Of a stretch of 64,000 nucleotides of DNA, positions 18,163 through 32,160 are shown one piece after another. The notes beneath the pieces were generated by a model. It was not told where the DNA came from. It saw nothing but the letters and a program-made list of their open reading frames with translations, and searched no databases. Made by a program: the position numbers and the translations under genes. The stretch spans positions 2,108,001 to 2,172,000 of the forward strand of contig NZ_PTJC01000005.1 in assembly GCF_002934605.1 (NCBI RefSeq), given 5' to 3'. Position 1 is the stretch's first letter, and each line of letters begins with the position of its first letter. This stretch comes from Neolewinella xylanilytica. GTDB lineage: Bacteria > Bacteroidota > Bacteroidia > Chitinophagales > Saprospiraceae.

Positions 18163-19320
18163 ATGCGTACACTCATTTGTCTGCTCGGTTTCCTCCTCCT
18201 CACGGAGGTTTGTTTCGCTCAGGTACAGTACCGACAGGGTACGGTCTACGTGGACGGGGCAAGCTCCCTTACCCTAAGCAACAACAAGTACCTCCAGCCG
18301 GAGAATACCTGGAGCGATCCACCCCGACCGGAATTTAACCGACTGGGGATAGCGCCCGGCCAGGTGGGCGTCTTTGCCTTTGACCGGCTTTTGGTTGGCG
18401 CCTACGCGAACTACGGGTACGGTTGGTACGGCGACCACTTCTTCGACGGTTCCAGAGGAGACTACCACAGTTACCGGGTCAATCCTTTCCTACGTTATTA
18501 CATTCTCGCGGGATCGGAACGTAATTGGAATCTTTTCGCCGAGTTGGGTTTTGGAACCTGGAGTAGCAATTTGTCCTCGGGCTTCGAAACCGATTTTCAC
18601 GTAGGTGTCGGCGTTGACGTCCCCCTCTGGCCGGGCGTAGTGGGCACGGCCAAATTGGATTATAACGCCTACGCCGAGGGACTTAATTACACCACTTTCG
18701 GTATTCGGGGAAACCTCCTACTTGGCCAGCTTGGTACCCGTATGCAGCAACCGATGGCCAAAGGAAGTTGGATGACCAAGAGTGATTTGGTCTCGGCTTC
18801 TATTGGACATATGCGTCGTGGTGACAACGACTGGGTGAATTATGGATATTCCTTCCACCCCACCGTGGGGTATTTCGTGGTCGATGGCCTGTTGCTGTCC
18901 GGTCTGGCCTCCGTTTCCTACAGCCGCAATCAGAACGATATCCAGCCCACGTCTATATTCGGCACCAACGCTAACTTGCGACACGTCAGTTTAGACACCG
19001 AACTCGAGGCCCGCTATTATCCCTGGCGCAACGGGAAGTTTTTACCCTACGCAGCGCTTGCCTTGGGATATAGCTCCCGGGAGTTTGAATCCGGGCAACC
19101 GGATACGGATGTGATCAACGACGAATCGTCAACGCAGTGGCGTGCCGCCGCGGGGCTGAGTTACTTCCTGGGGCAGAACGTCGCCTTGGAAGTGTCCGCC
19201 GCGTACCAACGGCAGGCTCGGAAAGTTGACTTCAACGATGGCTTTACTGGTAGCCCCAACGAATACCGGGACATCTCCCTCCAAACCGGCTTCGCCTTCT
19301 ATTTCGGCGAAGGGCGATAG
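18163..19320 (+). CDS. Outer-membrane beta-barrel protein (paralogue 1)
   Basis: A 385-residue protein with a signal peptide (LICLLGFLLLTEVCFAQ) and barrel-like repeats of alternating strands, ending FAFYFGEGR. Landmarks shared with the next gene are FETDFHVGVGVD, LNYTTFGI, SIGHMRR, VGYFVVDGLLL and an LxARYYPWR-type strand, so the two arose by tandem duplication. The barrel seems built from two related halves, each with a GYF(V/F)-type strand. No functional family is recognised beyond outer-membrane barrel. It follows the pseudogene region and is separated from its paralogue by 141 bases. Confidence 0.8.
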   Translation: MRTLICLLGFLLLTEVCFAQVQYRQGTVYVDGASSLTLSNNKYLQPENTWSDPPRPEFNRLGIAPGQVGVFAFDRLLVGAYANYGYGWYGDHFFDGSRGDYHSYRVNPFLRYYILAGSERNWNLFAELGFGTWSSNLSSGFETDFHVGVGVDVPLWPGVVGTAKLDYNAYAEGLNYTTFGIRGNLLLGQLGTRMQQPMAKGSWMTKSDLVSASIGHMRRGDNDWVNYGYSFHPTVGYFVVDGLLLSGLASVSYSRNQNDIQPTSIFGTNANLRHVSLDTELEARYYPWRNGKFLPYAALALGYSSREFESGQPDTDVINDESSTQWRAAAGLSYFLGQNVALEVSAAYQRQARKVDFNDGFTGSPNEYRDISLQTGFAFYFGEGR

Positions 19321-19461: not shown

Positions 19462-20637
19462 ATGCTCCAGCGGACTTTCCTATGCCTTTTCGTGACCTGC
19501 CTCTTTAGCGCATTTCTTTCCGGCCAGGGTACGCGCGGGGGGAGCTTTTACCTTGACGGTGGGGCTTCCCTCCTGCAGTATGCGCGGATCGATTACCCGG
19601 AATTCGGAGTGTATTTTCAACCCTATCGCTTGCAGGGACGACAAGAGAGCTGGCGGGCCAATGTGTTGCCGATCGGCTATTTCTTGACGGACCGCTTCCT
19701 CGTCGGAGTCCGATTTGACTACCAGAAGACCTATTCCGATGACTACTGGGCCTCGGAACAAGCGTTCGGCGAATCCGATACCTGGTCCAGCCTTCGCCCC
19801 TTCGTGCGCTATTACCCCCTGAGCGGAAACGACCGCCGGTGGGACGTATTCGGCGAAGTCGGCTTCGGCCGGATCGGACTGAAGGGCTATACCGGCATTG
19901 AAACCGACTTCCATCTGGCCGCCGGAATCGATTACCGTCTCGGTTCGGGTGTGCTGGCCACCGCCCGACTGGCCTACAATGGGTTCGCCACCGATCTGAA
20001 TTACACCACCCTCGAAATCGGCCCCCGCATCCTGCTCAACGAGATCAGCGGCCCGACCGGTCAGTCCCGCCTGGCGCGCGGAACCGGCTTCGTGCGCGGT
20101 GCGCTCTTCCGCGGCAGTGTCGGCCACATGCGCCGGCAGGGGGAAGACTGGCTGGACTACCGCTTCGAAATTACCCCCTCCGCCGGTTATTTCTTTGCCG
20201 ACGGTCTCGCGGTCGTGGCCGAGGTAGACTGGAAGATCGGCGGAGAGTACAATTACCTCGAGGTAAACAGCTACCCGGCCCGCTACGGCAACCATGTACT
20301 GACCGATTTCCAGACTTCCCTGGGTATGCGCTACTATCCTCTCCGGACCTCCCGGCTGGTTCCCTTTGCCGGTCTCTCGGCGGGCCACTACCGCTACGAG
20401 TACGATCATGAGCTGGAAAACAGCGTCGATACCCGGGTAAAGGCCTTCACCTACCGCGGCACCCTTGGGGGGACTTATTTCCTGTCCGATCGCCTGGCCC
20501 TGGAGACCCTCGTTTCCTACACAAAGCGGGATGAACGCATGCGCTATCGGTATATCTCCGACGGGGAGTGGATAGATACCGCCTCTGATCGCCTGGTCGT
20601 GGAGGCCGGATTCGTAGTCTACCTGGGCGGCCAATAG
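19462..20637 (+). CDS. Outer-membrane beta-barrel protein (paralogue 2)
   Basis: A 391-residue protein with a signal peptide (LFVTCLFSAFLSGQ). It shares IETDFHLAAGID, LNYTTLEIG, SVGHMRRQGEDW, AGYFFADGL and GMRYYPLR with the preceding gene, and ends VEAGFVVYLGGQ. Length and strand order are conserved between the two, but they are far from identical, so the duplication is old. The stop is followed at once by the heptamer repeat tract and the BlaI operators. Role unknown; surface structural or adhesive roles are possible. Confidence 0.8.
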   Translation: MLQRTFLCLFVTCLFSAFLSGQGTRGGSFYLDGGASLLQYARIDYPEFGVYFQPYRLQGRQESWRANVLPIGYFLTDRFLVGVRFDYQKTYSDDYWASEQAFGESDTWSSLRPFVRYYPLSGNDRRWDVFGEVGFGRIGLKGYTGIETDFHLAAGIDYRLGSGVLATARLAYNGFATDLNYTTLEIGPRILLNEISGPTGQSRLARGTGFVRGALFRGSVGHMRRQGEDWLDYRFEITPSAGYFFADGLAVVAEVDWKIGGEYNYLEVNSYPARYGNHVLTDFQTSLGMRYYPLRTSRLVPFAGLSAGHYRYEYDHELENSVDTRVKAFTYRGTLGGTYFLSDRLALETLVSYTKRDERMRYRYISDGEWIDTASDRLVVEAGFVVYLGGQ

Positions 20638-20650
20638 CCCCCCAACCCGA

Positions 20651-20716
20651 CCCCGAACCCCGCACCTCGAACCCCGCACCTCGAACCCCGAACCCCGAAC
20701 CCCGAACCCCGAACCC
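20651..20716. repeat. 7-bp tandem repeat tract (9.4 copies)
   Basis: Nine heptamers in exact phase: CCCCGAA six times, CCCCGCA twice... more precisely CCCCGAA at 20651, 20686, 20693, 20700 and 20707; CCCCGCA at 20658 and 20672; CCTCGAA at 20665 and 20679; then CCC. The reverse strand reads GGGGTTCG-type units. The tract ends four bases before the first BlaI-type operator box. Such a simple repeat can change length by slippage and would shift sequence just upstream of the promoter. Confidence 0.93.
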
Positions 20717-20719
20717 ACC

Positions 20720-20735
20720 TACGATAAAAATCGTA
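20720..20735. promoter_or_regulatory. BlaI-type operator box 1
   Basis: Perfect inverted repeat TACGAT-AAAA-ATCGTA. It covers the region between the presumed -33 and -7 elements of the repressor-peptidase operon, so bound repressor would block RNA polymerase. BlaI/MecI repressors bind dyads of this general size; the TACGA half-site replaces the TACA of the staphylococcal operator. Confidence 0.8.
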
Positions 20736-20737
20736 CC

Positions 20738-20745
20738 TAAATTTG
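20738..20745 (+). promoter_or_regulatory. -7 promoter box of the blaI-M56 operon
   Basis: TAAATTTG is an exact match to the Bacteroidota TAnnTTTG box. It lies between operator boxes 1 and 2, putting the transcription start at about 20751, inside box 2, and giving a leader of about 45 bases before the ATG at 20798. Confidence 0.65.
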
Positions 20746-20751
20746 CATGTC

Positions 20752-20767
20752 TACGAGAAGTCTCGTA
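20752..20767. promoter_or_regulatory. BlaI-type operator box 2
   Basis: Perfect inverted repeat TACGAG-AAGT-CTCGTA, centred 32 bases after box 1 and lying over the predicted transcription start. Confidence 0.8.
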
Positions 20768-20774
20768 CTTTAGC

Positions 20775-20790
20775 TACGAGAAAAATCGTA
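20775..20790. promoter_or_regulatory. BlaI-type operator box 3
   Basis: Imperfect inverted repeat TACGAG-AAAA-ATCGTA, centred 23 bases after box 2 and ending seven bases before the repressor ATG. All three boxes share TACGA(T/G)-N4-(A/C)TCGTA. Confidence 0.75.
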
Positions 20791-20797
20791 ATAAGCC

Positions 20798-21175
20798 ATG
20801 CAAAGCCCCCCCACCGCCTCCGAACTGGCGATCCTTCAGCTCCTCTGGGACAACGGTCCGCTGACCGTCCGCCAGGTCCACGACGCCCTGAGCGAGGAGA
20901 AAGAAGTCGGTTACACTACCACGCTCAAGACGATGCAGGTCATGCTCGACCGCGGCTTCCTGACCCGGGAGGCGCAGGGTAGGGGGCACATCTACGCGGC
21001 CGCCATCGCCAAGGAGGATACCCAGGACAAACTGCTGGACAACTTCCTCGACCGCACCTTCGGCGGCTCGGTCAAGGGGCTCGTGATGCGCGCGCTGGGC
21101 AACCGTAAGGCTTCCCGCAAAGACATTCAGGAACTCAAGGCCCTCATCGACCGGCTGGAAAACGAAGACCAATGA
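20798..21175 (+). CDS. BlaI/MecI/CopY-family transcriptional repressor
   Basis: A 125-residue repressor of the normal BlaI size. The N-terminal winged helix (residues 1-75) includes LTVRQVHDAL and GYTTTLKTMQVMLDRGFL, the recognition helix, then a wing (GRGHIYAA). The C-terminal dimer domain contains LLDNFLDRTFGGS; an N-F pair at residues 82-83 is comparable with the site that BlaR1-type proteases cut in BlaI, though this is inference. Three TACGA palindromes cover its promoter, implying autorepression. Its stop overlaps the M56 peptidase start (ATGA, 21172-21175), so the repressor and its presumed inactivating protease are made together. Confidence 0.95.
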   Translation: MQSPPTASELAILQLLWDNGPLTVRQVHDALSEEKEVGYTTTLKTMQVMLDRGFLTREAQGRGHIYAAAIAKEDTQDKLLDNFLDRTFGGSVKGLVMRALGNRKASRKDIQELKALIDRLENEDQ

Positions 21176-23886
21176 TCACCCGACTCCTCACCCCCCACCT
21201 CGTCGACGCCCTCGGCTGGACTCTGTTGCACACCCTCTGGCAGGGCGCCCTCTTCGCCCTGCTGCTGGGCCTCGTGCTGATCCTGCTGCGTGCGTTCAGT
21301 CCCCGGGCTCGCTACTACGTCGCCTGCGGCTTCCTGGGTGCTTTCGTACTTACCGTCGGGCTTACCTTTTACGAGTTGTACGCTTCCGAGGATTCCTTGG
21401 CAGCGGTTCAGGACACCGGCAACTTGATAGTCTCCAACGAGTCCGGTACGCAACCGACTTCGGAATCCATTATGGCGCCGGAGCGCAGGAGAGAGGCAAC
21501 TTCCAACGAAGCCGAGGCCGCTCCGCTTACCGCCTTTCTCCAGTCTGCCCGCACGTACTTCGACCGTCACCTGCCGCTCCTCGTGACCCTCTGGCTGATG
21601 GGCGTACTGGTCCTCCAACTGCGCCTGCTCGGTCAATTGGCCTGGGTGCAGCGGGTCAAGAGCTACGGTACCGCCCGCTTTCCCGCCGTCTGGGCGGAGC
21701 GGCTGCAGGACCTGGAACAGAAACTCGACATCCGCCGGCCAGTCCGCTACCTGACATCGGGTCGGGTGAGTAGTCCGTTCACCGCAGGCTGGCTGCGGCC
21801 GGTGGTGCTGTTGCCGGGCGATATGCTTACGTCCCTCCGCGAGAGTCAAGTCATGACCATCCTGGCCCACGAGCTGGCCCACATCAAGCGGCAGGACTTC
21901 GCCGTGAACGTGCTGCAGACCTTCCTTACGACCTTCTTCTTTTATCACCCCGGCGTCTGGTGGATGTCGGCCCGCATCCAGGACGAGCGCGAGCACTGCT
22001 GCGACGACCTGGCCGTGGCCGCTACCGGTGAGCGGATCGATTACGCCCGTACCCTGGTCGAGCTTCAGGAGAAAGAATTGCTGGCTCCGAAGCTGTCCAT
22101 GGCCCTCAGCGGCCGGGGCTTCACCGGGCGGGTGAGTCGCCTGCTCAACGGCTACCTGAACACCGCCACCTTCGGCGAGGGGGTGATCACGACGCTGATC
22201 TTTGCCGCCGTGCTATCGCTGGCCATCGGGACTACGGGTGAGGTGCAGGCTTCGGGGACGTTGGCCGAGGCCGAACCTTCCGGGGAATTCAGTTCTCCTG
22301 CGCTCGGCGCCCAAATTATGTCGGAAGAAGAAACGGAGGCCATGAACCAAGCCATTCACGCCGCCGCCCGGGAAGCCGGACGTCAGACAAACCAACAGCA
22401 CTTCCAGGCCACGGAACCGCGCAACCGCGAAGACTTCCACTTTGATTTTGACGCCGACGTAAACGTGCACGAAGACGGCGCGGAAGATGCATTTTCCCTG
22501 CTCATGCACGCTATCTACGACGGCGACCTGGAGATGGTCAAATACCTGCTGGAGAAGGTCAACGACCTCAGCCAGACCGACGAGCGCGGCTTCACACCCC
22601 TGATGGCGGCGGCCAGCGAGAACCACGTCGACGTAGCCAAGCTGCTGATCGAGCGCGGCGCGGACGTCAACCAGGTGCACCGACAGTGGACGGCGCTTAT
22701 CGAGGCGGCCGACGAGGGTTCGCTGGAAGTGGCCGAACTTCTCCTGGACAACGGAGCATCCGTCAACTTCGACGGTGGTTCCGGCCGGAGTGCCAGCGTC
22801 ATGGCCGCCTCGGAGGGGCACCTGAATGTTCTACAACTGCTCGAGGCCCGGGGGGCATACCTAGGGGACGGGGGAGGAAAGCTGTCGCCGTTACACGCGG
22901 CGGCACATGAAGGACATAAAGAGATTGTCCGGTACCTACTCGATCAGGGAGTGGAGGTGGACCACCGTGACGGCTGGGGCCAAACTGCCCTGATGTTTGC
23001 CGCGGAGGAACGACACACGGAAGTTGTAAGTATGCTGCTGGAGGCCGGTGCCGATCCGGAATTGAAGGATGTGAACGGGAATACCGCCCCCATCCGAGCG
23101 GCGAAAGAAGCCGCCGGAGAAAGTCTTCAGGAGATGGCCCAACACATGGGCGACCTGGCGGTGGAGCGCCTGATGGCCACCCCGGAGATCGTGCTCGGAC
23201 CAGCGGAGGAGGGCGATCTCTTCACCCTCCGCGCCATGCTCGAGATGGGCATGGATGTGGACATTGCCGATCGGGCGGGACGTACCGCCCTCTTGAATGC
23301 CGCCGCAGAGGGGCATCTGGAGATAGTCGAATACCTGCTGGAGCAGGGTGCCAGCGTTCATGGTAAAGCGGACAGCCCGCTGTTCTCGCCCATCTTCCGG
23401 GCATCCCGGGAGGGGCACGCCCTGGTTGTGGAAACCCTGATCGTCCAAGGCGCACAGCTGGAAAACGGCTGCACCTACGAGGAGATCGAGAACGACGAGC
23501 GCACCTACCTGAACCGCTACAGTGGCATTACCCCCCTCGCCGTGGCGATACAGGAAAATCACCCCCGAACGGTGGAAGCGCTGCTCGCCGGCGGGGCCGA
23601 CCCGGACGGTACGTTCGGACGAACCACCTGGCTGCTGCCGGAGGATACCGACTGGCAGGAAGTACGGCGCATGCGCGATGGCGATATCGCCCGCGAAGGC
23701 GAGTTACTGTACCGGTCCTCCGACTGGACCCCCCTACTGCAGGCCGTGGAAACCGGCGAGCAGCGGCTGGTCCGCATGCTGCTGGAAGCGGGCGCCGATA
23801 AAGGGCATACCACCTCCGACGGCATCTCCGCCATTTCTTTGGCGCGCCGTCTCGGGCACGACGACCTCGTTGCCCTTTTACAATAA
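21172..23886 (+). CDS. M56 (BlaR1-like) membrane metallopeptidase fused to ankyrin repeats
   Basis: A 904-residue fusion. Residues 1-360 are an M56 peptidase: helices near 14-40 and 46-66, a helix near 133-153, zinc motif HELAH at 233-237, a DEREHCCDD segment near 272 with the third ligand, and a helix near 333-352. Residues about 438-904 hold roughly a dozen ankyrin repeats (motifs such as TPLMAAASENHVDVAKLL and LLEAGAD), with a less regular part around 640-680. In BlaR1 the part after the fourth helix is the extracellular beta-lactam sensor; by that topology the ankyrins would face the periplasm. The partner BlaI overlaps upstream. Signal and proteolytic target beyond BlaI are unknown. Confidence 0.9.
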   Translation: MITRLLTPHLVDALGWTLLHTLWQGALFALLLGLVLILLRAFSPRARYYVACGFLGAFVLTVGLTFYELYASEDSLAAVQDTGNLIVSNESGTQPTSESIMAPERRREATSNEAEAAPLTAFLQSARTYFDRHLPLLVTLWLMGVLVLQLRLLGQLAWVQRVKSYGTARFPAVWAERLQDLEQKLDIRRPVRYLTSGRVSSPFTAGWLRPVVLLPGDMLTSLRESQVMTILAHELAHIKRQDFAVNVLQTFLTTFFFYHPGVWWMSARIQDEREHCCDDLAVAATGERIDYARTLVELQEKELLAPKLSMALSGRGFTGRVSRLLNGYLNTATFGEGVITTLIFAAVLSLAIGTTGEVQASGTLAEAEPSGEFSSPALGAQIMSEEETEAMNQAIHAAAREAGRQTNQQHFQATEPRNREDFHFDFDADVNVHEDGAEDAFSLLMHAIYDGDLEMVKYLLEKVNDLSQTDERGFTPLMAAASENHVDVAKLLIERGADVNQVHRQWTALIEAADEGSLEVAELLLDNGASVNFDGGSGRSASVMAASEGHLNVLQLLEARGAYLGDGGGKLSPLHAAAHEGHKEIVRYLLDQGVEVDHRDGWGQTALMFAAEERHTEVVSMLLEAGADPELKDVNGNTAPIRAAKEAAGESLQEMAQHMGDLAVERLMATPEIVLGPAEEGDLFTLRAMLEMGMDVDIADRAGRTALLNAAAEGHLEIVEYLLEQGASVHGKADSPLFSPIFRASREGHALVVETLIVQGAQLENGCTYEEIENDERTYLNRYSGITPLAVAIQENHPRTVEALLAGGADPDGTFGRTTWLLPEDTDWQEVRRMRDGDIAREGELLYRSSDWTPLLQAVETGEQRLVRMLLEAGADKGHTTSDGISAISLARRLGHDDLVALLQ

Positions 23887-23946: not shown

Positions 23947-26334
23947 ATGAGAACCCTACTCCTACTGGGGTTGCTGGCCTGTGCTGGTAGCCTCCCAGCC
24001 ACCGCTTTGTCCACTGTGGACCATTTACTATCCGGCCGGGTCGTCGTAGCCGCCACCGGGGATGCCCTCGAGTACGCTACCGTGTCGGCCTATTCGCCCG
24101 ACACTACGCTGGTCAACGGCACGGTGACCGGCTCCGACGGCACCTTCCAACTGACCCTGCCGGCGGGCGATTACCTACTGCGCGTCGAGTTCATCGGCTA
24201 CGCCGAGCAGCAGGTCGAGGTCAGCCTGCAGGCGCCTAAACGGCTCGACGACATATTAATCGAGGCCGCCGACGTCCATCTGGACGCAGTAGAGGTCACC
24301 GCCGAACGCAGCCGCATGAACCTCTCGCTCGACAAAAAGACCTTCAACGTCGGCCAGGACCTGCTGGCCCGCGGCGGATCGGCCAACCAACTGCTGGAGC
24401 AACTCCCCTCGGTAACGGTCAGTCCCGAAGGCGCCGTCAGCCTGCGCGGCAACGCCGGGGTGAAGGTGCTCATCAACGGACGGCCATCGGCCCTGGCGGA
24501 CAATGGGGCCCTGGAGAGCATCCCCGCCGAAAGCATCGAACGGGTAGAGATCATCACCAACCCCTCGGCGCGCTACGAGGCCGCCGGTACGGCCGGCATC
24601 ATCAATATCATCCTGAAAAAGGACCAGCAACGCGGCTACGGCGGCACCTTCAGCCTGACTACGGGCTTTCCGGCCGACCACCGCGCCAACGGGAACCTGA
24701 ACCTCCGGCGGGAGAAATTCACCGCCTTCCTCACCGCCGGGGCGCGCTATTCCAATTACCGGGGCCGGGAGGACAATTCCCGCGTAAGCCGGTTGGGGGA
24801 AACCACTTACACCCTGGATCGTACCATGGACCAGGACCGCAACGACGTGGCCGCCAATGCCTACGCCGGCGTGGATTACCACCTCAGCGAGACGTCCACG
24901 GTGTCGGGCAGCTACTCCCTCTACTGGATGATCAACGACGACGAAGCTCTGACCGACTTCGATTACGGGGGTAGTGACCCGAGACAAGCGAGAAATTGGC
25001 AGCAGGCCATCGACTACCGCGAGCCGGGCCTGTACCAGCAACTGGACTTCACTTTCGACCGGCAACTGCCGAACGGGGCAAAACTCACCGCCTACCTGAA
25101 GAACGACCTGTGGGAGGAGACCGAGCGCGAACGGTCCACCTTCGAGGAGCTGGCACCGAGTTCGGGTACTACGCTCGACTACGTGACCGAAAGCCGGGAG
25201 GGTAGCCGCGACCACCTCCTGCAAATAGACTACCTGCGCCCCCTCGGGGAGGGAAAAACCCTCGAGGCGGGTCTACGGGGCGAAACCCGGGTGATCGTCG
25301 CCGAATACCTGGCCACCGACCTGCTGCCGGCCACCTCCGCGGTGCTGCCGGGCTTTGCTAACCGTCTGGATTACTTCGAGCGCATCGGGTCGGCCTACGT
25401 GCAGTACAGCCGGGAGGGGGAGAAAATCGGCTACCAATTGGGCCTGCGGAACGAATTCACCCTCGTACGTACGGAAAACGAATCCGCCGAAATGGACGAC
25501 CTCCGGAAGCCCTACAACCGGCTCTTCCCGACCGCTAACGTGACCTACACCTTCACCGAGGGCCTGCGTAGTCAGCTGAGCTACAGCAAGCGGATTCAGC
25601 GCCCCGGCTTCTGGCAGCTGAACCCCTTCATGAGTCTTTCCGACCCTAACGGACTCTTCGTCGGCAACCCCGACCTGGATCCCGCCTACACCGACCGGCT
25701 GGAGATAAATGTGGTGAGCCAGTCGGATAAACTGACCCTGAACCCGGCCGTCTACGCCAGCCGTACCACGGACTTCTTCCAGTTCGTGGTCGACTACCGG
25801 GAAGCGAACGTCTTCGACCTGCAGGACGGCACCATCGTGGTCCGGCCGGTCAATCTGGACCACGAGGATCGCCTCGGCCTCGAACTGACCGCCAGCTACC
25901 GCCCCGTGGAAGCGTTGACCCTTACGGGGGAGTGGAACTACTTCGGCTACCGGCAGCGGGGGAAGACCGTCGAACGGGACTTCGCCCTCGAACAGCAGAG
26001 CTGGACGGCGGGGGCGCGGGCCAGTGTCTCCTTACCCGGCGGGTTCCAGGCGCAGGCGAGCTTCCAGTACAGTGCGCCCTTTGCCACGGCACAGGGAACG
26101 CGGCTGGGACTCTCCAGCGCCCTCTTTGGGATGAGTAAGGAATGGGACAAGCTATTCACCCTGACCCTGAACGTCCGTAGCCCACGCTTTCAGCGTACTG
26201 TGACCGACTTGCCTGAGCTCTACGAGTCGGGGGAGCGGTTCCAGACCGGATGGCGATTCGGGGCTACGCTGATATACCGCTTCGAGCGCGGAGCAGACAG
26301 CCGGGAGCGGGATGCGCGCGGCAACATCCGGTAA
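23947..26334 (+). CDS. TonB-dependent receptor-like outer-membrane barrel protein (PF14905 type)
   Basis: A 795-residue protein with a signal peptide, a CarboxypepD_reg-like domain (residues about 28-105: LSGRVVVAATGDALEYATV), a plug domain (ANQLLEQLPSVTVS, GVKVLINGRPS, IERVEIITNPSARYEA) and a long barrel of the Outer_membrane_beta-barrel family. The barrel includes SYSKRIQRPGFWQLNPF and NPDLDPAYTDRLE, both usual in this family, but the end (YRFERGADSRERD) is charged rather than a terminal aromatic strand. It begins 60 bases after the M56-ankyrin gene on the same strand, so it could be co-regulated with it. Ligand unknown. Confidence 0.9.
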   Translation: MRTLLLLGLLACAGSLPATALSTVDHLLSGRVVVAATGDALEYATVSAYSPDTTLVNGTVTGSDGTFQLTLPAGDYLLRVEFIGYAEQQVEVSLQAPKRLDDILIEAADVHLDAVEVTAERSRMNLSLDKKTFNVGQDLLARGGSANQLLEQLPSVTVSPEGAVSLRGNAGVKVLINGRPSALADNGALESIPAESIERVEIITNPSARYEAAGTAGIINIILKKDQQRGYGGTFSLTTGFPADHRANGNLNLRREKFTAFLTAGARYSNYRGREDNSRVSRLGETTYTLDRTMDQDRNDVAANAYAGVDYHLSETSTVSGSYSLYWMINDDEALTDFDYGGSDPRQARNWQQAIDYREPGLYQQLDFTFDRQLPNGAKLTAYLKNDLWEETERERSTFEELAPSSGTTLDYVTESREGSRDHLLQIDYLRPLGEGKTLEAGLRGETRVIVAEYLATDLLPATSAVLPGFANRLDYFERIGSAYVQYSREGEKIGYQLGLRNEFTLVRTENESAEMDDLRKPYNRLFPTANVTYTFTEGLRSQLSYSKRIQRPGFWQLNPFMSLSDPNGLFVGNPDLDPAYTDRLEINVVSQSDKLTLNPAVYASRTTDFFQFVVDYREANVFDLQDGTIVVRPVNLDHEDRLGLELTASYRPVEALTLTGEWNYFGYRQRGKTVERDFALEQQSWTAGARASVSLPGGFQAQASFQYSAPFATAQGTRLGLSSALFGMSKEWDKLFTLTLNVRSPRFQRTVTDLPELYESGERFQTGWRFGATLIYRFERGADSRERDARGNIR

Positions 26335-26336
26335 GC

Positions 26337-26693
26337 TTAAAGCCCATATTCCGCCCGCAGCTTTTTGGTCATGCCGGCCACCACCAGGTCGTAGCTGTGA
26401 TCGATCAACTCTCGCACTAGCGATTCGGGGAGCGTACCCCCCTCGACGTGTACCGTGTTCCAGTGTGCTTTACTCATGTGCCAGCCCTGCATGATTTCCG
26501 GATGACGCTCTCGTAATTCGATGGCTCGCTGCGGGTTGCACTTAAGGTTGATACGAAAATCAGCTTCGTCGAGCCCGGTCAGGGCAAACATTTTTCCCGC
26601 CACCTTTAAGACCAGGGTAGTCGGGCCGAAGGGTAGCGTCTCCGTTACGGCAGGTTTTTTTAAACAATATTCCCGGAAAGTAAGCAGATCCAT
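26337..26693 (-). CDS. MmcQ/YjbR-family protein
   Basis: A 118-residue protein from the ATG at 26693, which gives the family start MDLLTFREYCL; a longer frame from 26783 adds 30 non-family residues. Family features are TETLPFGPTTLVLKVAGKMFAL, INLKCNPQRA and the C-terminal HWNTVHVEGG with DLVVAGMTKKLR. The CyaY-like fold binds double-stranded DNA in one studied member, but the physiological role is unknown. It converges on the receptor gene with only two bases between the stop codons and is divergent from the next receptor. Confidence 0.9.
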   Translation of the reverse strand: MDLLTFREYCLKKPAVTETLPFGPTTLVLKVAGKMFALTGLDEADFRINLKCNPQRAIELRERHPEIMQGWHMSKAHWNTVHVEGGTLPESLVRELIDHSYDLVVAGMTKKLRAEYGL

Positions 26694-26863
26694 CAGGTTG
26701 GATTTATAGCCGGAACAAGGTATGGATATCGGGCAAACCGGAAGAAATGTTGTGTAAACAACTATAACCGGCAAGTATTTCACCCCCCTGAAAGGGATAA
26801 ATACATCCCGGAACGTACCTTTAAGCAGTTCGTTGACCTTGCCTTCACCTGCCCTACCCTGAT

Positions 26864-29293
26864 ATGAAACGTGTTGTCTTCGTCTCTCTACTGCTATGGT
26901 TCAGTGTTGTTCTTTCCGCACAGTATCACCTGTCGGGGAACGTTAGCGATGCGGACGGCGCGGCCATTCCCTTCGCCAACGTCGCGCTTTACTTGGCCGC
27001 TGATTCCTCCCTGGTCAAGGTGGAAACCACCAATGACCTGGGCTCCTTCGACCTGGCAAACGTTCCGCAGGGGGAGTACGACCTCGTGATATCTTACGTC
27101 GGAACCCCCGATCTGCGCCAGGCCCGCATCATCCTGTCCGGTAACCGCGACCTGGGCACGATGGCCATGGCCAGGCCGGGCGTCGACCTAACGGGCGCTA
27201 CGGTCACCGCCCAACGGGCGCTCGTGGAAGTCAAGCCCGATCGCACCATCTTCAACGTACAGGGTACCATCAACGCCGCCGGCAGCGACGGACTGGAGTT
27301 GTTGCGCAAAGCACCGGGCGTCAGCGTCGACAACAGCGACAACATCAGCGTCCTGAGCCGCTCCGGCGTACTCGTGTACGTGGACGGCCGCAACGTACCC
27401 CTCCAGGGCGCCGACCTCAGTAACTACCTGCGCAACCTCACCGCCGAGCAGATCGAACGCATCGACATCATCACCAGCCCGGGAGCCCGCTACGAGGCGC
27501 AGGGCAACGCCGGCATCATCGATATCCGGCTGAAAAAGGCCGAAGACGAGGGGGCCAACGGTAGCATGACCGCGGCCGCCAGTCAGGGGCGCTACGCCCG
27601 CTACGCGGTGAATGTCGGGGGCAATTACCGCAATGATCGCTTCAACCTCTTCGGCAACCTGAGCTACGGCTACAATCAGAACTTCAGTCAGAGCAACTTT
27701 ACCTCCCGGCAGCGCTCCTTCCTGCTGATCGACGATTTGTACAGCGTACCCATTCTGCGCACCCCGGGCATTCGTACCGGACTGGACGTGTACCTCGGCG
27801 ACCGGCATACGGTAGGCATCCTCTTCACCGGACAGTACGAGGACGGACGCCGGGTGGTCAACAACAGCACCGAAATCTACGAGCGGGAACGTCCGGGGGT
27901 TGTGCTGCTCGAACCGGACAGCATCCTCCGCGCCCAGGTATTTGACGACGGCGATCACAACCTGAATACCTTCAACGTCAATTACAACTTCGCCATCGGT
28001 GCCGGGCATAACTTGAACCTTGACCTGGACTACGGCCGCTACCGGCACGCAAACGTGATCGATCAACCGAACCGCTATTTCTCCCCGGGGGGGCAGCTGC
28101 TCAGCGTATCGGACAACAGCTTCGACACGCCGATCGACATTACCATCCATACCGCGCGGCTGGATTACAACCTACCGATTGGTAAGGGGGCGGCGAGCGC
28201 GGGTGCCAAGTATTCCGGGGTGGAGACGAGCAATACCTTCCTGTTTTATCAGGGGTTAAGCGGCGACCGGACCCTGATCGCGGAACGAAGCAATCTCTTT
28301 CACTACGATGAATCGGTATTCGCGGGCTACCTATCGTATGGCGGGCAATTGAGTGAATCCGTCAGCTTCTCCGCTGGGGTACGCATGGAAGTGACCGATG
28401 CTGCCGGTACCCTCACCGCCGTCGAAACGGGCAGGAGCGAGCCCTCGGTAGATTTTAATTACGTCAGTTTCTTTCCCAACGCCGGATTGACCTACTCCAC
28501 TCCCGACGGCAATACGATCAATCTGCGCTACGGCCGCCGCATTAATCGCCCCGATTACAGCAGCCTCAACCCCTTCCGCGTCCAACTGAACGAGCTGAGT
28601 TATCGCCGCGGCAATCCCTTCCTCCAGCCCGAAAAGGTGAATAACGTGGAACTGGGTTACGTACTGGGCGGACGGTACAACTTCAAGCTCGCCTACAGCC
28701 GTACCGACGACCAGGTGGCCCAACTCTTCAGCCCCGACGATTCCATCGCACTGGCCGGTTTCGAGACCTACGACAACCTCGCCCGGCAGACCGTGGTGAA
28801 CTTTACCGCCAGCGCGCCGATCCAGATCACTGCCTGGTGGCGCTCCTACCTCAACGCCAGCGCCGGCTACATCAGCAACGAAGCCGATTACGGTGAGGGT
28901 GGAATCGTAGATATCGACCTTTTCAACTATCGGTTTTACAACCAAAATACCTTCACGCTTCCCGCCGGCTTCACCGGGGAGATCACCGGCCAGTACATCG
29001 GACCCGGCGTGGGCGGGGGCATCTTCGTTTACGACGGCTTCGGCGTAGTCAATCTGGGGCTGCAGCGCAGGTTGCTGGCCGATAAACTCACCGCTAAGCT
29101 CACGGTCAGCGACATTTTCTACACCTCGATCATCAACGGGGAGTCCAATTTTAACGGACTGATCGCACAGGGTAGGGTAGCGCAGGACACCCGCCGGGTC
29201 GGCCTCTCGCTGAGTTATAACTTCGGTAACCAAAAGGTCAAAGTTCGTAGCCGGGACACCGGCCTCGACGAAGCGGCGGGCCGGGTGCACTAA
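26864..29293 (+). CDS. PF14905-type outer-membrane receptor (tandem paralogue A)
   Basis: An 809-residue protein: signal peptide (FVSLLLWFSVVLSAQ), CarboxypepD_reg-like domain (HLSGNVSDADGAAIPFANVAL), plug (ALVEVKPDRTIFNVQGTI, LLRKAPGVSVD, GVLVYVDGR, IDIITSPGARYEAQGNAG) and a barrel with RYGRRINRPDYSSLNPF. It ends in a basic tail after LSLSYNFGNQKV. It is clearly paralogous to the next gene, with whole motifs (ALVEVKPDRT, ARYEA, IIDIRLKKAEDEGANGS) conserved. A -7-like TACCTTTA is at 26816-26823. It probably binds or imports an oligomeric nutrient, but the ligand is unknown. Confidence 0.9.
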   Translation: MKRVVFVSLLLWFSVVLSAQYHLSGNVSDADGAAIPFANVALYLAADSSLVKVETTNDLGSFDLANVPQGEYDLVISYVGTPDLRQARIILSGNRDLGTMAMARPGVDLTGATVTAQRALVEVKPDRTIFNVQGTINAAGSDGLELLRKAPGVSVDNSDNISVLSRSGVLVYVDGRNVPLQGADLSNYLRNLTAEQIERIDIITSPGARYEAQGNAGIIDIRLKKAEDEGANGSMTAAASQGRYARYAVNVGGNYRNDRFNLFGNLSYGYNQNFSQSNFTSRQRSFLLIDDLYSVPILRTPGIRTGLDVYLGDRHTVGILFTGQYEDGRRVVNNSTEIYERERPGVVLLEPDSILRAQVFDDGDHNLNTFNVNYNFAIGAGHNLNLDLDYGRYRHANVIDQPNRYFSPGGQLLSVSDNSFDTPIDITIHTARLDYNLPIGKGAASAGAKYSGVETSNTFLFYQGLSGDRTLIAERSNLFHYDESVFAGYLSYGGQLSESVSFSAGVRMEVTDAAGTLTAVETGRSEPSVDFNYVSFFPNAGLTYSTPDGNTINLRYGRRINRPDYSSLNPFRVQLNELSYRRGNPFLQPEKVNNVELGYVLGGRYNFKLAYSRTDDQVAQLFSPDDSIALAGFETYDNLARQTVVNFTASAPIQITAWWRSYLNASAGYISNEADYGEGGIVDIDLFNYRFYNQNTFTLPAGFTGEITGQYIGPGVGGGIFVYDGFGVVNLGLQRRLLADKLTAKLTVSDIFYTSIINGESNFNGLIAQGRVAQDTRRVGLSLSYNFGNQKVKVRSRDTGLDEAAGRVH

Positions 29294-29685: not shown

Positions 29686-32160
29686 ATGCCAACGTTCACC
29701 CACTTCGCTTCCTTATTTTTGATGCTCTTGTTTACGCCGAGCCTTACGCAGGCCCAGGACTCCGCAGCCAATAAATTCATCATTCGTGGTCAGGTACAGG
29801 ATGCCGCGGGCACGGCCGTCGCTTTCGCCAACGTTGCGCTCTACACGGCCTCCGACAGCACCCTGGCTAAAGTGGAAACGACCGGCGACGACGGACTATT
29901 CCGCATCGTCGACGTACCCGGCAATACGTATGACCTGGTGGTCACCTACATCGGCGCCCCCGAGCTGCGGATGCCGGGAATCCGGGTCGACCGGGACGTT
30001 GACGTCGAGGTATTACAGCTTAGTCCTGCGGGCGTGGAACTCGCCGAAGCCACGGTGACCGCCCGCCGCGCCCTGGTGGAGGTGAAACCGGACCGAACGG
30101 TCTTCAACGTAGAAGGCACCATCAATGCCGTTGGAAATTCCGGTCTGGATCTGCTCCGGAAGGCCCCCGGGGTTACCGTCGATAACAACGATAACATCAA
30201 TGTACTGAGCCGCTCGGGCGTCCTCCTGTACGTAGACGGACGGCGCATGCCCCTATCGGGCGCCGACTTGGCCACCTACCTCCGTAACCTGAACGCGGAA
30301 GAGATTGACCGCATCGACATCATCACGAACCCCGGGGCCCGCTACGAGGCGGAAGGCAACGCCGGCATCATCGACATCCGACTCAAGAAAGCGGAAGACG
30401 AAGGTGCTAACGGCAGCGTCAGCGTGAATGGCAGTCAGGGCCGTTACTCCCAGGGGAACGTTACGGCCAACGGTAACTACCGCAACCGGTGGATCAACGT
30501 GTTCGGCAGCGCCGGCTATGCCAACTCACAGTGGTATAACGTAACCGGACTGGAGAACTACCAAAACAGTTTGCTACTCGATCAGGTGGTGTTCAATTCT
30601 TCCGTCAACTCCTCACCCAATTACCGGATCGGGGCGGACTTTAGCGTTGGCGAAAAACATACACTCGGCTTCCTGGCCAGCGGGCGGTACAATGATAATA
30701 CGGGCTACGTCCGCGACGACGTCGACATTTTCAATCTGGCTACCGGAGTGGAAACCGTTGACAGTACCCTGGCGGCGCGTACCGACAACGACTCCGATCG
30801 GTCGCAGAACGCTTATAACCTGAACTACCGTTATCTCCCCGGGGAAGGGCAGACGCTGAACGTCGACCTTGACTTTGGCCGCTATCGCAACGATGCCTTA
30901 TCGGAACAGGTCAATGCCTACACCAATGCCGCGGGGTCGCCGCTGTCGAGCATCTATTACTACTTCGATACGCCGATCGACATCGATATCTACACTGCCA
31001 AGGCGGATTACGAACGCACGCTTTGGGGCGGTACGCTGAGTGCCGGTGGTAAATTCTCCCGGGTGATGACCGAAAACACCTTTCTGTTTTACGACGTGCA
31101 TCCCGGGGCGCCGAGCGAGCGCACGCTGGACGAACAGCTCAGCAACCGCTTCGATTACACCGAAAACGTCTACGCCGGTTACCTGAGCTACCAGGGAAAA
31201 TGGAGCGATCGGTGGCAGTTTACCGCGGGCTTGCGGGCTGAAATCACCGATGCGGAAGGCGAATTGATGCCTTTCCTTGAAGAACTACGGGAGCCGCCCG
31301 TCGAGCTGAATTACGTGAGTTTCTTTCCGAATGCCGGGCTGACGTATAGCCTCGATGCCCAAAAGGGAAATACGCTCAACCTGGCATACGGTCGACGGAT
31401 TAATCGGCCGGACTACAACGTCCTAAATCCCTTCCGCGAGCAGATCAGCCAGCTGACCTACGAGCGTGGCAACCCCTTTCTCCGCCCGGAAATCGTCGAC
31501 AACCTGGAGCTGGGCTACACCCATGCCTACCGCTACAATTTCAAGCTGGGCTATAGCAGTACGTCTAACCAGATTACGCGGCTCATCGGGCCTGACAACG
31601 AAGATCCCCGCGCCGGTTACATCAGCTGGGACAATCTGGCCAGCCAGCGCGTCATCTCCTTCAACGCCAGCGCGCCGATGCAGCTCCAGGAAAAGTGGAA
31701 TCTCTACGTGAATGCGTCGGCTAGCCACCTGTATAACCAGGCCGACTACGGTGACGGGGCGGTGATCGACGTGAAGGCCTTCACTTACAGCTTTTTCGTA
31801 CAGAATACCATCAACCTGCCCTGGAATCTCGTCGCGGAAATCGGCGGTTACTTCTCCGGTCCGGGCGTGTGGGGTGGCGTGCTGCGCTACAACGAGCAGG
31901 GAGCCCTGAACCTGGGACTGCAGCGGAAATTTCTCAACGATCAGCTCAATGTCAAACTGAGTGCGAATGACATCCTCTTCACCTCCGGTTGGACGGGAAC
32001 CAGCGAATTCAATGGGCTGCGAACGGTTGGCTACGGAAACTGGGACAGCCGCCGGGTCGCCCTCAGTTTGAGCTATTCGTTCGGAAACCAGCAGGTCAAA
32101 AGCCGCAACCGGCGTACGGGGCTGGAAAAGGAAGCGGAGCGCCTTGGCGACGGGGAATAG
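29686..32160 (+). CDS. PF14905-type outer-membrane receptor (tandem paralogue B)
   Basis: An 824-residue protein with signal peptide (FLMLLFTPSLTQAQ), CarboxypepD_reg-like domain (FIIRGQVQDAAGTAVAFANVAL), plug (ALVEVKPDRTVFNVEGTI, LLRKAPGVTVDNNDNIN, GVLLYVDGR, IDIITNPGARYEAEGNAG) and barrel (AYGRRINRPDYNVLNPF). It ends in a charged tail after LSYSFGNQQVKSRNRR. Similarity to the previous gene runs the whole length, so the two are a tandem duplication, but their promoters differ. A perfect palindrome follows 24 bases after the stop. Confidence 0.9.
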   Translation: MPTFTHFASLFLMLLFTPSLTQAQDSAANKFIIRGQVQDAAGTAVAFANVALYTASDSTLAKVETTGDDGLFRIVDVPGNTYDLVVTYIGAPELRMPGIRVDRDVDVEVLQLSPAGVELAEATVTARRALVEVKPDRTVFNVEGTINAVGNSGLDLLRKAPGVTVDNNDNINVLSRSGVLLYVDGRRMPLSGADLATYLRNLNAEEIDRIDIITNPGARYEAEGNAGIIDIRLKKAEDEGANGSVSVNGSQGRYSQGNVTANGNYRNRWINVFGSAGYANSQWYNVTGLENYQNSLLLDQVVFNSSVNSSPNYRIGADFSVGEKHTLGFLASGRYNDNTGYVRDDVDIFNLATGVETVDSTLAARTDNDSDRSQNAYNLNYRYLPGEGQTLNVDLDFGRYRNDALSEQVNAYTNAAGSPLSSIYYYFDTPIDIDIYTAKADYERTLWGGTLSAGGKFSRVMTENTFLFYDVHPGAPSERTLDEQLSNRFDYTENVYAGYLSYQGKWSDRWQFTAGLRAEITDAEGELMPFLEELREPPVELNYVSFFPNAGLTYSLDAQKGNTLNLAYGRRINRPDYNVLNPFREQISQLTYERGNPFLRPEIVDNLELGYTHAYRYNFKLGYSSTSNQITRLIGPDNEDPRAGYISWDNLASQRVISFNASAPMQLQEKWNLYVNASASHLYNQADYGDGAVIDVKAFTYSFFVQNTINLPWNLVAEIGGYFSGPGVWGGVLRYNEQGALNLGLQRKFLNDQLNVKLSANDILFTSGWTGTSEFNGLRTVGYGNWDSRRVALSLSYSFGNQQVKSRNRRTGLEKEAERLGDGE

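What the first reader, a model, noticed from the sequence alone, without database searches (positions are those of the whole stretch)
21172..23886. M56 peptidase fused to a long ankyrin-repeat domain
BlaR1-type M56 peptidases normally carry a penicillin-binding sensor after the fourth helix. Here that position is taken by about a dozen ankyrin repeats (residues about 438-904). By BlaR1 topology the repeats would face the periplasm, an uncommon place for ankyrins. The HELAH site is intact and a BlaI gene overlaps it, so the signalling logic (sensor, protease, repressor cut) seems complete with a new input: a protein or peptide ligand sensed by ankyrins.
Basis: partly seen in the sequence, partly recalled or inferred. 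Interest (0 to 1): 0.7.

Follow-up and report, generated by a model that had tools for sequence, protein, structure and literature searches.

The report
Ankyrin-sensing protease switch with own receptor
A bacterium related to Lewinella carries a membrane protease of the kind that can sense penicillin, but with a long protein-binding arm in place of the penicillin sensor, and it travels with the repressor it should cut and with one outer-membrane receptor that it probably monitors.

Summary
ORF 21172-23886 encodes an M56 (BlaR1-type) protease with an intact HELAH site and 13 ankyrin repeats; blaI overlaps it by 4 bp. It is no assembly artefact: the 120 best of 3119 database hits, the window's own included, carry M56 plus Ank, and fusions from 23 loci form one clade. 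Charge bias, and paralogues with TonB_C or CarbopepD domains after the last helix, suggest that the ankyrins are periplasmic.

A TonB-dependent-receptor-like protein (23947-26334) comes next in 17 of 21 assessable fusion loci and in 0 of 57 assessable control M56 loci (32 of them Bacteroidota). Three TACGA-N6-TCGTA operators precede blaI; in this genome tandem copies occur only here and at one paralogous blaI-M56 operon.

Linked receptors end in a nearly invariant, disordered basic tail, R..R[G/R].I-R-COOH: 16 of 17, against 0 of 19 next-best relatives. The ankyrin inner helices are acidic; they lost that charge where the receptor lost its tail (L151) or is missing (L153), but not at three other loci without the receptor. 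I propose a proteolytic cell-surface-signalling switch dedicated to its own receptor. Tail reading is inference. New variant of a known kind.

The parts
20720..20735 (.). BlaI-type operator 1, TACGATAAAAATCGTA
   Evidence: the DNA search; two or three such copies ahead of blaI in 22 of 23 fusion loci, one copy in the 23rd (L049), whose contig starts there
20738..20745 (+). TAAATTTG, fits the Bacteroidota -7 promoter box TAnnTTTG (consensus recalled)
   Evidence: between operators 1 and 2; exact TAnnTTTG in 10 of the 13 upstream regions printed; no shuffled control was run
20752..20767 (.). BlaI-type operator 2, TACGAGAAGTCTCGTA
20775..20790 (.). BlaI-type operator 3, TACGAGAAAAATCGTA
20798..21175 (+). 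blaI-like repressor, 125 aa
   Evidence: Penicillinase_R E 1.1e-28; PDB relatives BlaI 1sd4 and MecI
21172..23886 (+). M56 protease with C-terminal ankyrin arm, 904 aa
21868..21882 (+). HELAH zinc site (H233, E234, H237); E274 and D278 follow
   Evidence: all five identical in 120 of 120 aligned homologues
22171..22227 (+). fourth predicted transmembrane helix, residues 334-352
   Evidence: hydropathy
22483..23883 (+). 13 ankyrin repeats, residues 438-904, inferred periplasmic
23947..26334 (+). TonB-dependent-receptor-like protein (Plug, OMP_b-brl_3), 795 aa, 60 bp after the protease gene
   Evidence: Pfam; model; Foldseek best matches PhuR, Cir, PfeA, BtuB, OprC
26293..26331 (+). receptor C-terminal tail, residues 783-795 (ends RDARGNIR), disordered in the model
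   Evidence: conservation; pLDDT below 50; controls
26337..26783 (-). convergent gene that closes the operon (YjbR-like, name recalled)
   Evidence: ORF list

Best explanation
The locus is a three-gene, self-repressed operon: blaI, M56-ankyrin protease, outer-membrane receptor. BlaI binds two or three tandem operators that overlap the promoter and shuts the whole operon (operators shown, binding inferred). The protease sits in the inner membrane as BlaR1 does: N-terminus out, zinc site facing the cytoplasm, ankyrin arm in the periplasm (inferred from charge and homology). The arm is dedicated to the receptor encoded next to it. I propose that it reads the receptor's conserved periplasmic C-terminal Arg tail along its acidic inner helices, and that a change in receptor state (ligand uptake or assembly) alters this contact and switches the protease on. 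The protease then cuts BlaI and the operon opens. In logic this is cell-surface signalling (FecA/FecR type) with a BlaR1/BlaI proteolytic relay instead of an anti-sigma factor. The sign of the contact, on or off, is not known.
For: Operon and operators: blaI adjoins the fusion in 23 of 23 loci; 2-3 operators in 22 of 23, one in L049, whose contig starts there. Tandem-operator search in 14 genomes: 36 forward hits against 1 for the reversed-pattern control. In the own genome only this operon and one paralogous blaI-M56 operon. Receptor dedication: next gene in 17 of 21 assessable fusion loci (gaps from an ORF overlap of 77 bp to 412 bp), against 0 of 57 assessable control M56 loci (68 examined, 11 with under 600 bp left; 32 of the 57 are Bacteroidota). 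All 11 receptor matches with E <= 1.1e-176 in 60 genomes lie at a fusion locus or, in G003, behind an ankyrin gene cut by its contig; next best 3.8e-130. 31 contig lengths are shared between the 120 best fusions and 120 best receptors, against 0-2 for 40 shifted versions. Tail: R..R[GR].IR at the end in 16 of 17 complete linked receptors and 110 of all 120 listed receptor hits, in 0 of the 19 complete ones among the 20 next-best relatives. Tail is disordered in the model. Acidic inner helices: net -5 to -9 in all 15 tail loci scored, +2 at L151 where the receptor lost its tail, -1 at L153 which has no receptor. Topology: mean net charge +2.6 (loop 1), +5.0 (protease loop), -3.9 (EL1), -8.1 (after TM4) over 120 homologues; TonB_C and CarbopepD_reg_2 follow the last helix in two own-genome paralogues.
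Against: Four of 21 assessable fusion loci lack the receptor (L054, L152, L153, L154); two of these (L054, L154) are the first branch inside the fusion clade, so the ankyrin arm may predate the receptor link. L152, L154 and L054 keep acidic helices without a linked receptor. P0118 has D514G although a receptor on a contig of the same length, P0238, keeps the tail. A bacterial ankyrin domain is often acidic (recalled). One M56 locus without ankyrins, L041, is also followed by a receptor of this Pfam type. The BlaI cut site of S. aureus is replaced. No binding, cleavage or expression datum exists. Co-inheritance in an operon does not by itself show physical contact.
Confidence: 0.5

Rival explanations
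1. The receptor is only the output. The ankyrins bind some other periplasmic protein or an imported peptide, for instance a cell-wall enzyme, and the protease then opens the operon.
For: Periplasmic ankyrins that bind cell-wall DD-endopeptidases are known: Bd3460 of Bdellovibrio (PMC4686830, passages read). L054 and L154, without the receptor, still have the arm.
Against: Tight linkage to one receptor clade and the near-invariant receptor tail are then unexplained.
Confidence: 0.27
2. Assembly quality control: the ankyrins bind the tail only while the receptor is not yet folded into the outer membrane, much as the DegS PDZ domain reads outer-membrane protein C-termini (recalled), and the operon is tuned so that receptor is not overproduced.
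For: The tail is C-terminal, disordered and conserved; sensor and receptor genes adjoin behind one operator array.
Against: The tail is not part of the last barrel strand and is absent from the 19 complete next-best relatives, so it is not a general assembly signal.
Confidence: 0.15
3. The ankyrins face the cytoplasm and bind a cytoplasmic partner, for example BlaI itself or RNA polymerase.
For: Most well-known bacterial ankyrin proteins act in cytosol, of the bacterium or of a host (recalled).
Against: Charge bias in 120 homologues, four hydrophobic helices, N-out/C-out in the BlaR1 structure (PMC9834060, abstract and passages read), periplasmic domains in the same slot of two paralogues, low Cys content of the arm, 0.41 against 1.27 per 100 residues in the protease loop (the loop has conserved Cys, so this is weak).
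Confidence: 0.05

Closest known systems
BlaR1/MecR1 with BlaI/MecI (Staphylococcus, Bacillus)
   Same: M56 protease with four predicted helices and a C-terminal extracytoplasmic domain, linked BlaI-family repressor, HEXXH...E...D residues. F317 aligns with the BlaR1 autocleavage Phe284 and is Phe in 113 and Leu in 7 of 120.
   Different: No penicillin-binding sensor, 13 ankyrin repeats instead; output is a TonB-dependent-receptor-like protein, not a beta-lactamase or PBP2a; the BlaI cut site differs.
Cell-surface signalling, FecA/FecR/FecI type
   Same: An outer-membrane receptor and an inner-membrane protein with a periplasmic domain that act together to control genes (review PMC7593790, passages read).
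   Different: No sigma or anti-sigma factor; relay is a protease plus repressor. The Pfam scan found no STN signalling domain in the receptor.
FEM1C ankyrin receptor for Arg/C-degrons (human)
   Same: Ankyrin repeats with an Asp that contacts a C-terminal arginine (PMC10026218, passages read).
   Different: Analogy only; eukaryotic ubiquitin ligase, no family link claimed. Pocket residues were not compared.
Bd3460 of Bdellovibrio
   Same: Periplasmic ankyrin repeats that bind a partner protein (PMC4686830, passages).
   Different: Soluble inhibitor with six repeats, no protease or signalling part.

Membership tests
M56 peptidase (BlaR1 family, PF05569) | Pfam match above cut-off | tested here: met
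   115.1 bits against cut-off 31
M56 peptidase (BlaR1 family, PF05569) | zinc and catalytic residues HEXXH, Glu, Asp, Arg | tested here: met
   H233, E234, H237, E274, D278, R320, R323 in 120 of 120
BlaR1/MecR1 beta-lactam sensors | C-terminal penicillin-binding sensor domain | tested here: not met
   only M56, M48-like and ankyrin families found at E up to 0.001; 86.9 bits against cut-off 400 for the NCBIfam BlaR1 model
BlaR1/MecR1 beta-lactam sensors | N-out, C-out four-helix topology | tested here: inconclusive
   four helices and charge bias fit; no experiment
BlaI/MecI/CopY repressors | Penicillinase_R domain and inverted-repeat operators at its own promoter | tested here: met
   100.3 bits against 22.6; three operator-like palindromes; binding not tested
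BlaI/MecI/CopY repressors | protease cut at Asn101-Phe102 of S. aureus BlaI (site recalled) | tested here: not met
   LVLN-FAKN aligns with LVMRALGN; MRALG or near variants in the 23 fusion loci aligned
TonB-dependent transporters | plug domain and large beta-barrel | tested here: met
   Plug and OMP_b-brl_3 above cut-off; model matches PhuR, Cir, PfeA, BtuB; TonB dependence itself not tested
Cell-surface signalling receptors (FecA type) | N-terminal STN signalling domain and sigma/anti-sigma pair | tested here: not met
   no STN in Pfam scan; N-terminal domain is CarboxypepD_reg; the linked regulator is BlaI

The most novel reading that the evidence does not exclude
A periplasmic ankyrin arm on a BlaR1-type protease reads the C-terminal Arg tail of its own outer-membrane receptor, giving a proteolytic form of cell-surface signalling without sigma or anti-sigma factors, and a bacterial parallel to C-terminal Arg recognition by FEM1 ankyrins.
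Probability: 0.35. Interest if true: 0.8.

Novelty: new variant of a known kind. Interest (0 to 1): 0.6.

Why it matters
It would show that the BlaR1/BlaI relay is a general protease-repressor chassis whose sensor can be exchanged, and that Bacteroidota can couple an outer-membrane receptor to transcription without sigma and anti-sigma factors. It names a concrete contact, a 13-residue receptor tail and an acidic ankyrin groove, that one binding assay can test. It also adds a likely case of periplasmic ankyrins, which are rarely described (recalled).

Tried and rejected
Assembly or annotation artefact: rejected. Ankyrins in the cytoplasm: disfavoured. Wide BlaI regulon: in the own genome the exact operator pattern has 8 places: 3 here, 2 at the paralogous blaI-M56 operon, and 3 single copies (L007 and L014 inside ORFs; L013 not resolved), close to the 2 that the reversed-pattern control gives. 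One tandem array in G038 (L173) has no blaI or M56 match in its 3 kb and lies about 46 bp upstream of a hydrolase-like gene, so the TACGAA-type operator can have other targets; a longer stretch fetched there (L206) was not analysed.

The Bacteroidota BAM paper PMC12578637 looked like a lead, but the M56 matches in the passages shown were a catalogue number. PF28177, listed for many homologues, did not appear in my scan of P0026 and P0074, which bear it there. Cleavage of this BlaI at the S. aureus site: not supported. A signal-peptidase-like site after helix 4 (VQA-S) was noticed, but it changes in the 40 homologues printed.

Counting notes. The 120 fusions are the best of 3119 and the 120 receptors the best of 3885, so both lean to close relatives. 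Receptor alignment A3 holds 106 of the 120; I left out 14, of which 9 have the tail and 5 do not (P0126, P0202 and P0231 look cut or shortened; P0225, P0233 have other ends). The control M56 loci are L057-L124; outside that set a non-ankyrin locus, L041, does have an OMP_b-brl_3 receptor next to it (E 2e-30 to the window's receptor, 2e-44 to the window's second one). The 20 next-best receptor relatives are called unlinked because one search lists no fusion beside them; only three neighbourhoods were fetched, and these had no blaI, M56 or ankyrin match. Fisher tests: linkage 17/21 against 0/57, p 1e-13; against the 32 Bacteroidota controls only, p 2e-10 (one search had used 68). The tree used 52 non-ankyrin rows of 53 intended, every second control locus, a short search and SH-aLRT only. 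Acid at both 514 and 515 is kept in 15 of 15 tail loci against 1 of 3 tail-less loci within the receptor-bearing clade, p 0.02 (one search had wrongly used 16): suggestive at most, the loci are related. In the 120-row alignment 10 rows lack acid at 514 or 515, some through alignment gaps.

Full report
What is there. The ORF 21172-23886 (+) encodes 904 residues with a BlaR1-type M56 protease domain (Pfam E 4.5e-33) and ankyrin repeats (Ank_2 E 7.6e-66). blaI, 125 aa, overlaps it by 4 bp. Four hydrophobic helices lie at 25-43, 49-67, 136-154 and 334-352, and HELAH at 233-237. The predicted structure has mean pLDDT 82.9, pTM 0.56, and high confidence through the ankyrin region; stretches below 50 are 84-113, 306-315, 326-337, 354-383 and 406-435. 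I count 13 repeats. The 50 Foldseek matches listed are ankyrin-repeat chains. By sequence, the membrane part matches the solved BlaR1 8exp (E 2e-4), and F317 aligns with its autocleavage Phe284 (residue named in PMC9834060, abstract).

It is a family. The 120 listed hits, of 3119 and including the window's own, carry both domains. In 396 genomes of the order, matches at E <= 1e-40 that reach beyond the M56 part are few and mostly in the window's genus. Of 20 other genomes of the genus, nine have an M56-Ank fusion by my reading of the rows, and G003 has a piece at a contig edge. 23 fusions from separate loci form one clade against 52 non-ankyrin relatives, SH-aLRT 99, so one origin is likely. 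Named holders include Neolewinella persica, N. agarilytica, Lewinellaceae SD302 and Saprospiraceae MAGs.

Topology. Over 120 homologues the mean net charge is -1.4 at the N-terminus, +2.6 in loop 1, -3.9 in EL1, +5.0 in the protease loop, +3.8 just before helix 4 and -8.1 after it. That is the N-out, C-out pattern reported for BlaR1 (PMC9834060, passages). In the same genome two other M56 proteins carry CarbopepD_reg_2 or TonB_C after the last helix; TonB_C works in the periplasm (established knowledge). None of the five paralogues has a penicillin-binding domain by Pfam.

The operon. Three palindromes TACGA-N6-TCGTA lie at 20720, 20752 and 20775. In the window alone three matches with up to one mismatch are not rare (17 of 100 shuffles), but all three are exact, lie in one 71-bp array ahead of blaI, and the array recurs: 2-3 copies in 22 of 23 fusion loci and one in L049 at its contig edge. 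Tandem arrays were sought in 14 genomes that hold a fusion: 36 forward hits, control 1; G013 and G019, whose copies are spaced wider, gave none. The hits form 25 arrays by my count; 24 lie at a BlaI or M56 gene and one, L173, does not. Fusion operons tend to have TACGA[TGC] and the others TACGAA, which may keep the repressors apart, but there are exceptions on both sides (L151, L152 and one copy in L023 have TACGAA; G005 C18 and G033 C165 and C181, not at fusions, have TACGAT). A -7-like box TAnnTTTG sits between operators in 10 of 13 printed regions. No exact operator lies between the protease gene and the receptor gene, which is 60 bp downstream, and a convergent gene follows it.

The receptor. 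23947-26334 is a Plug plus OMP_b-brl_3 protein. Its model has an N-terminal sandwich, plug and large barrel, mean pLDDT 84.3, and matches PhuR, Cir, PfeA, BtuB and OprC. It is the next gene in 17 of 21 assessable fusion loci (two more, L019 and L050, are cut by contig ends), with gaps up to 412 bp, and in 0 of 57 assessable control M56 loci, 32 of them Bacteroidota. Among 60 genomes, the 11 matches with E <= 1.1e-176 are all at fusion loci, one of them behind a fusion cut by its contig (G003); the next is 3.8e-130. 31 contig lengths are shared between the two lists of 120 database hits, against 0-2 after 40 shifts.

The tail. After the last barrel strand these receptors carry a short basic tail that ends R..R[G/R].I-R. 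In the alignment the final residue is Arg in 105 of 106, while the last strand itself varies. Of 17 complete receptors next to a fusion (16 full loci plus L158), 16 have it; the exception is L151; of all 120 listed receptor hits, 110 have it. None of 19 complete receptors among the 20 next-best matches has it; one, L179, has a related RGNR end. In the window it reads RDARGNIR. It is disordered in the model. Both ends of such barrels lie in the periplasm (established knowledge), where the ankyrins are inferred to be.

The other side. Repeats 3 and 4 are conserved at surface positions that usually vary: E511 in 110, D514 in 110, E515 in 114 and E548 in 111 of 120. The inner-helix positions of repeats 2-6 carry net -5 to -9 in all 15 tail loci scored. 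L151, whose receptor lost its tail, has +2, and L153, which has no receptor, -1. But L152, L154 and L054, also without the receptor, have -8, -13 and -15, and P0118 has D514G although a receptor on a contig of equal length keeps the tail. So the match is suggestive, not proof. Human FEM1C ankyrins bind C-terminal arginine through an Asp (PMC10026218, passages), which shows the chemistry is possible.

How it most likely works. BlaI represses the operon; the protease, when switched, cuts BlaI; the receptor is both output and the best candidate input. Shown: genes, operator-like palindromes, linkage, conservation. Inferred: topology, repressor binding, cleavage, ankyrin-receptor contact, and the direction of control.

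What is in print. Searches for M56 + ankyrin + BlaR1 and BlaR1 + ankyrin gave no paper; M56 + 'ankyrin repeat' gave 17, and the 15 listed are unrelated by title and abstract start; BlaI + M56 + Bacteroidetes (6 papers), Peptidase M56 + TonB + Bacteroidetes (none) and BlaI + BlaR1 + TonB-dependent (4 papers) gave nothing on this system in the listings. The library holds only open-licence papers. Databases name single members 'ankyrin repeat domain-containing protein' or 'M56 family metallopeptidase'.

Noticed in passing
window 20646-20716: A 7-bp tandem repeat CCCGAAC, about 10 copies, directly upstream of the operator array; a 24-base piece of it, with up to 2 mismatches, matches nowhere else in the genome.
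   Followed up: partly
window 18163-19320 and 19462-20637: Two related beta-barrel outer-membrane proteins in tandem upstream of blaI; a relative of the second is also upstream in G001 (L016, L204), but none was matched in the other fusion loci searched.
   Followed up: partly
window 26864-29293 and 29686-32160: Two more long ORFs downstream that resemble outer-membrane receptors by eye (Pfam not run); their ends differ from the tail and include T-G-L-[DE].
   Followed up: no
L173 1501-1541 (G038): A TACGAA-type tandem operator about 46 bp upstream of a hydrolase-like gene, with no blaI or M56 match in the 3 kb: a possible remote regulon member.
   Followed up: partly
L152 4514-6019 (G015): A fusion operon without the receptor is followed, about 220 bp on, by a gene that looks like a class C beta-lactamase-type serine hydrolase (by eye, not scanned).
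   Followed up: no
L005 (own genome): Another M56 protein has a long C-terminal array of short repeats around I-H-[DG]-[LV] that no Pfam family matches at E up to 0.01.
   Followed up: no
A3 rows P0193, P0211, P0216, and P0233: Four receptor relatives end in P[GS]RSNR instead of RGSIR; their neighbourhoods were not fetched.
   Followed up: no
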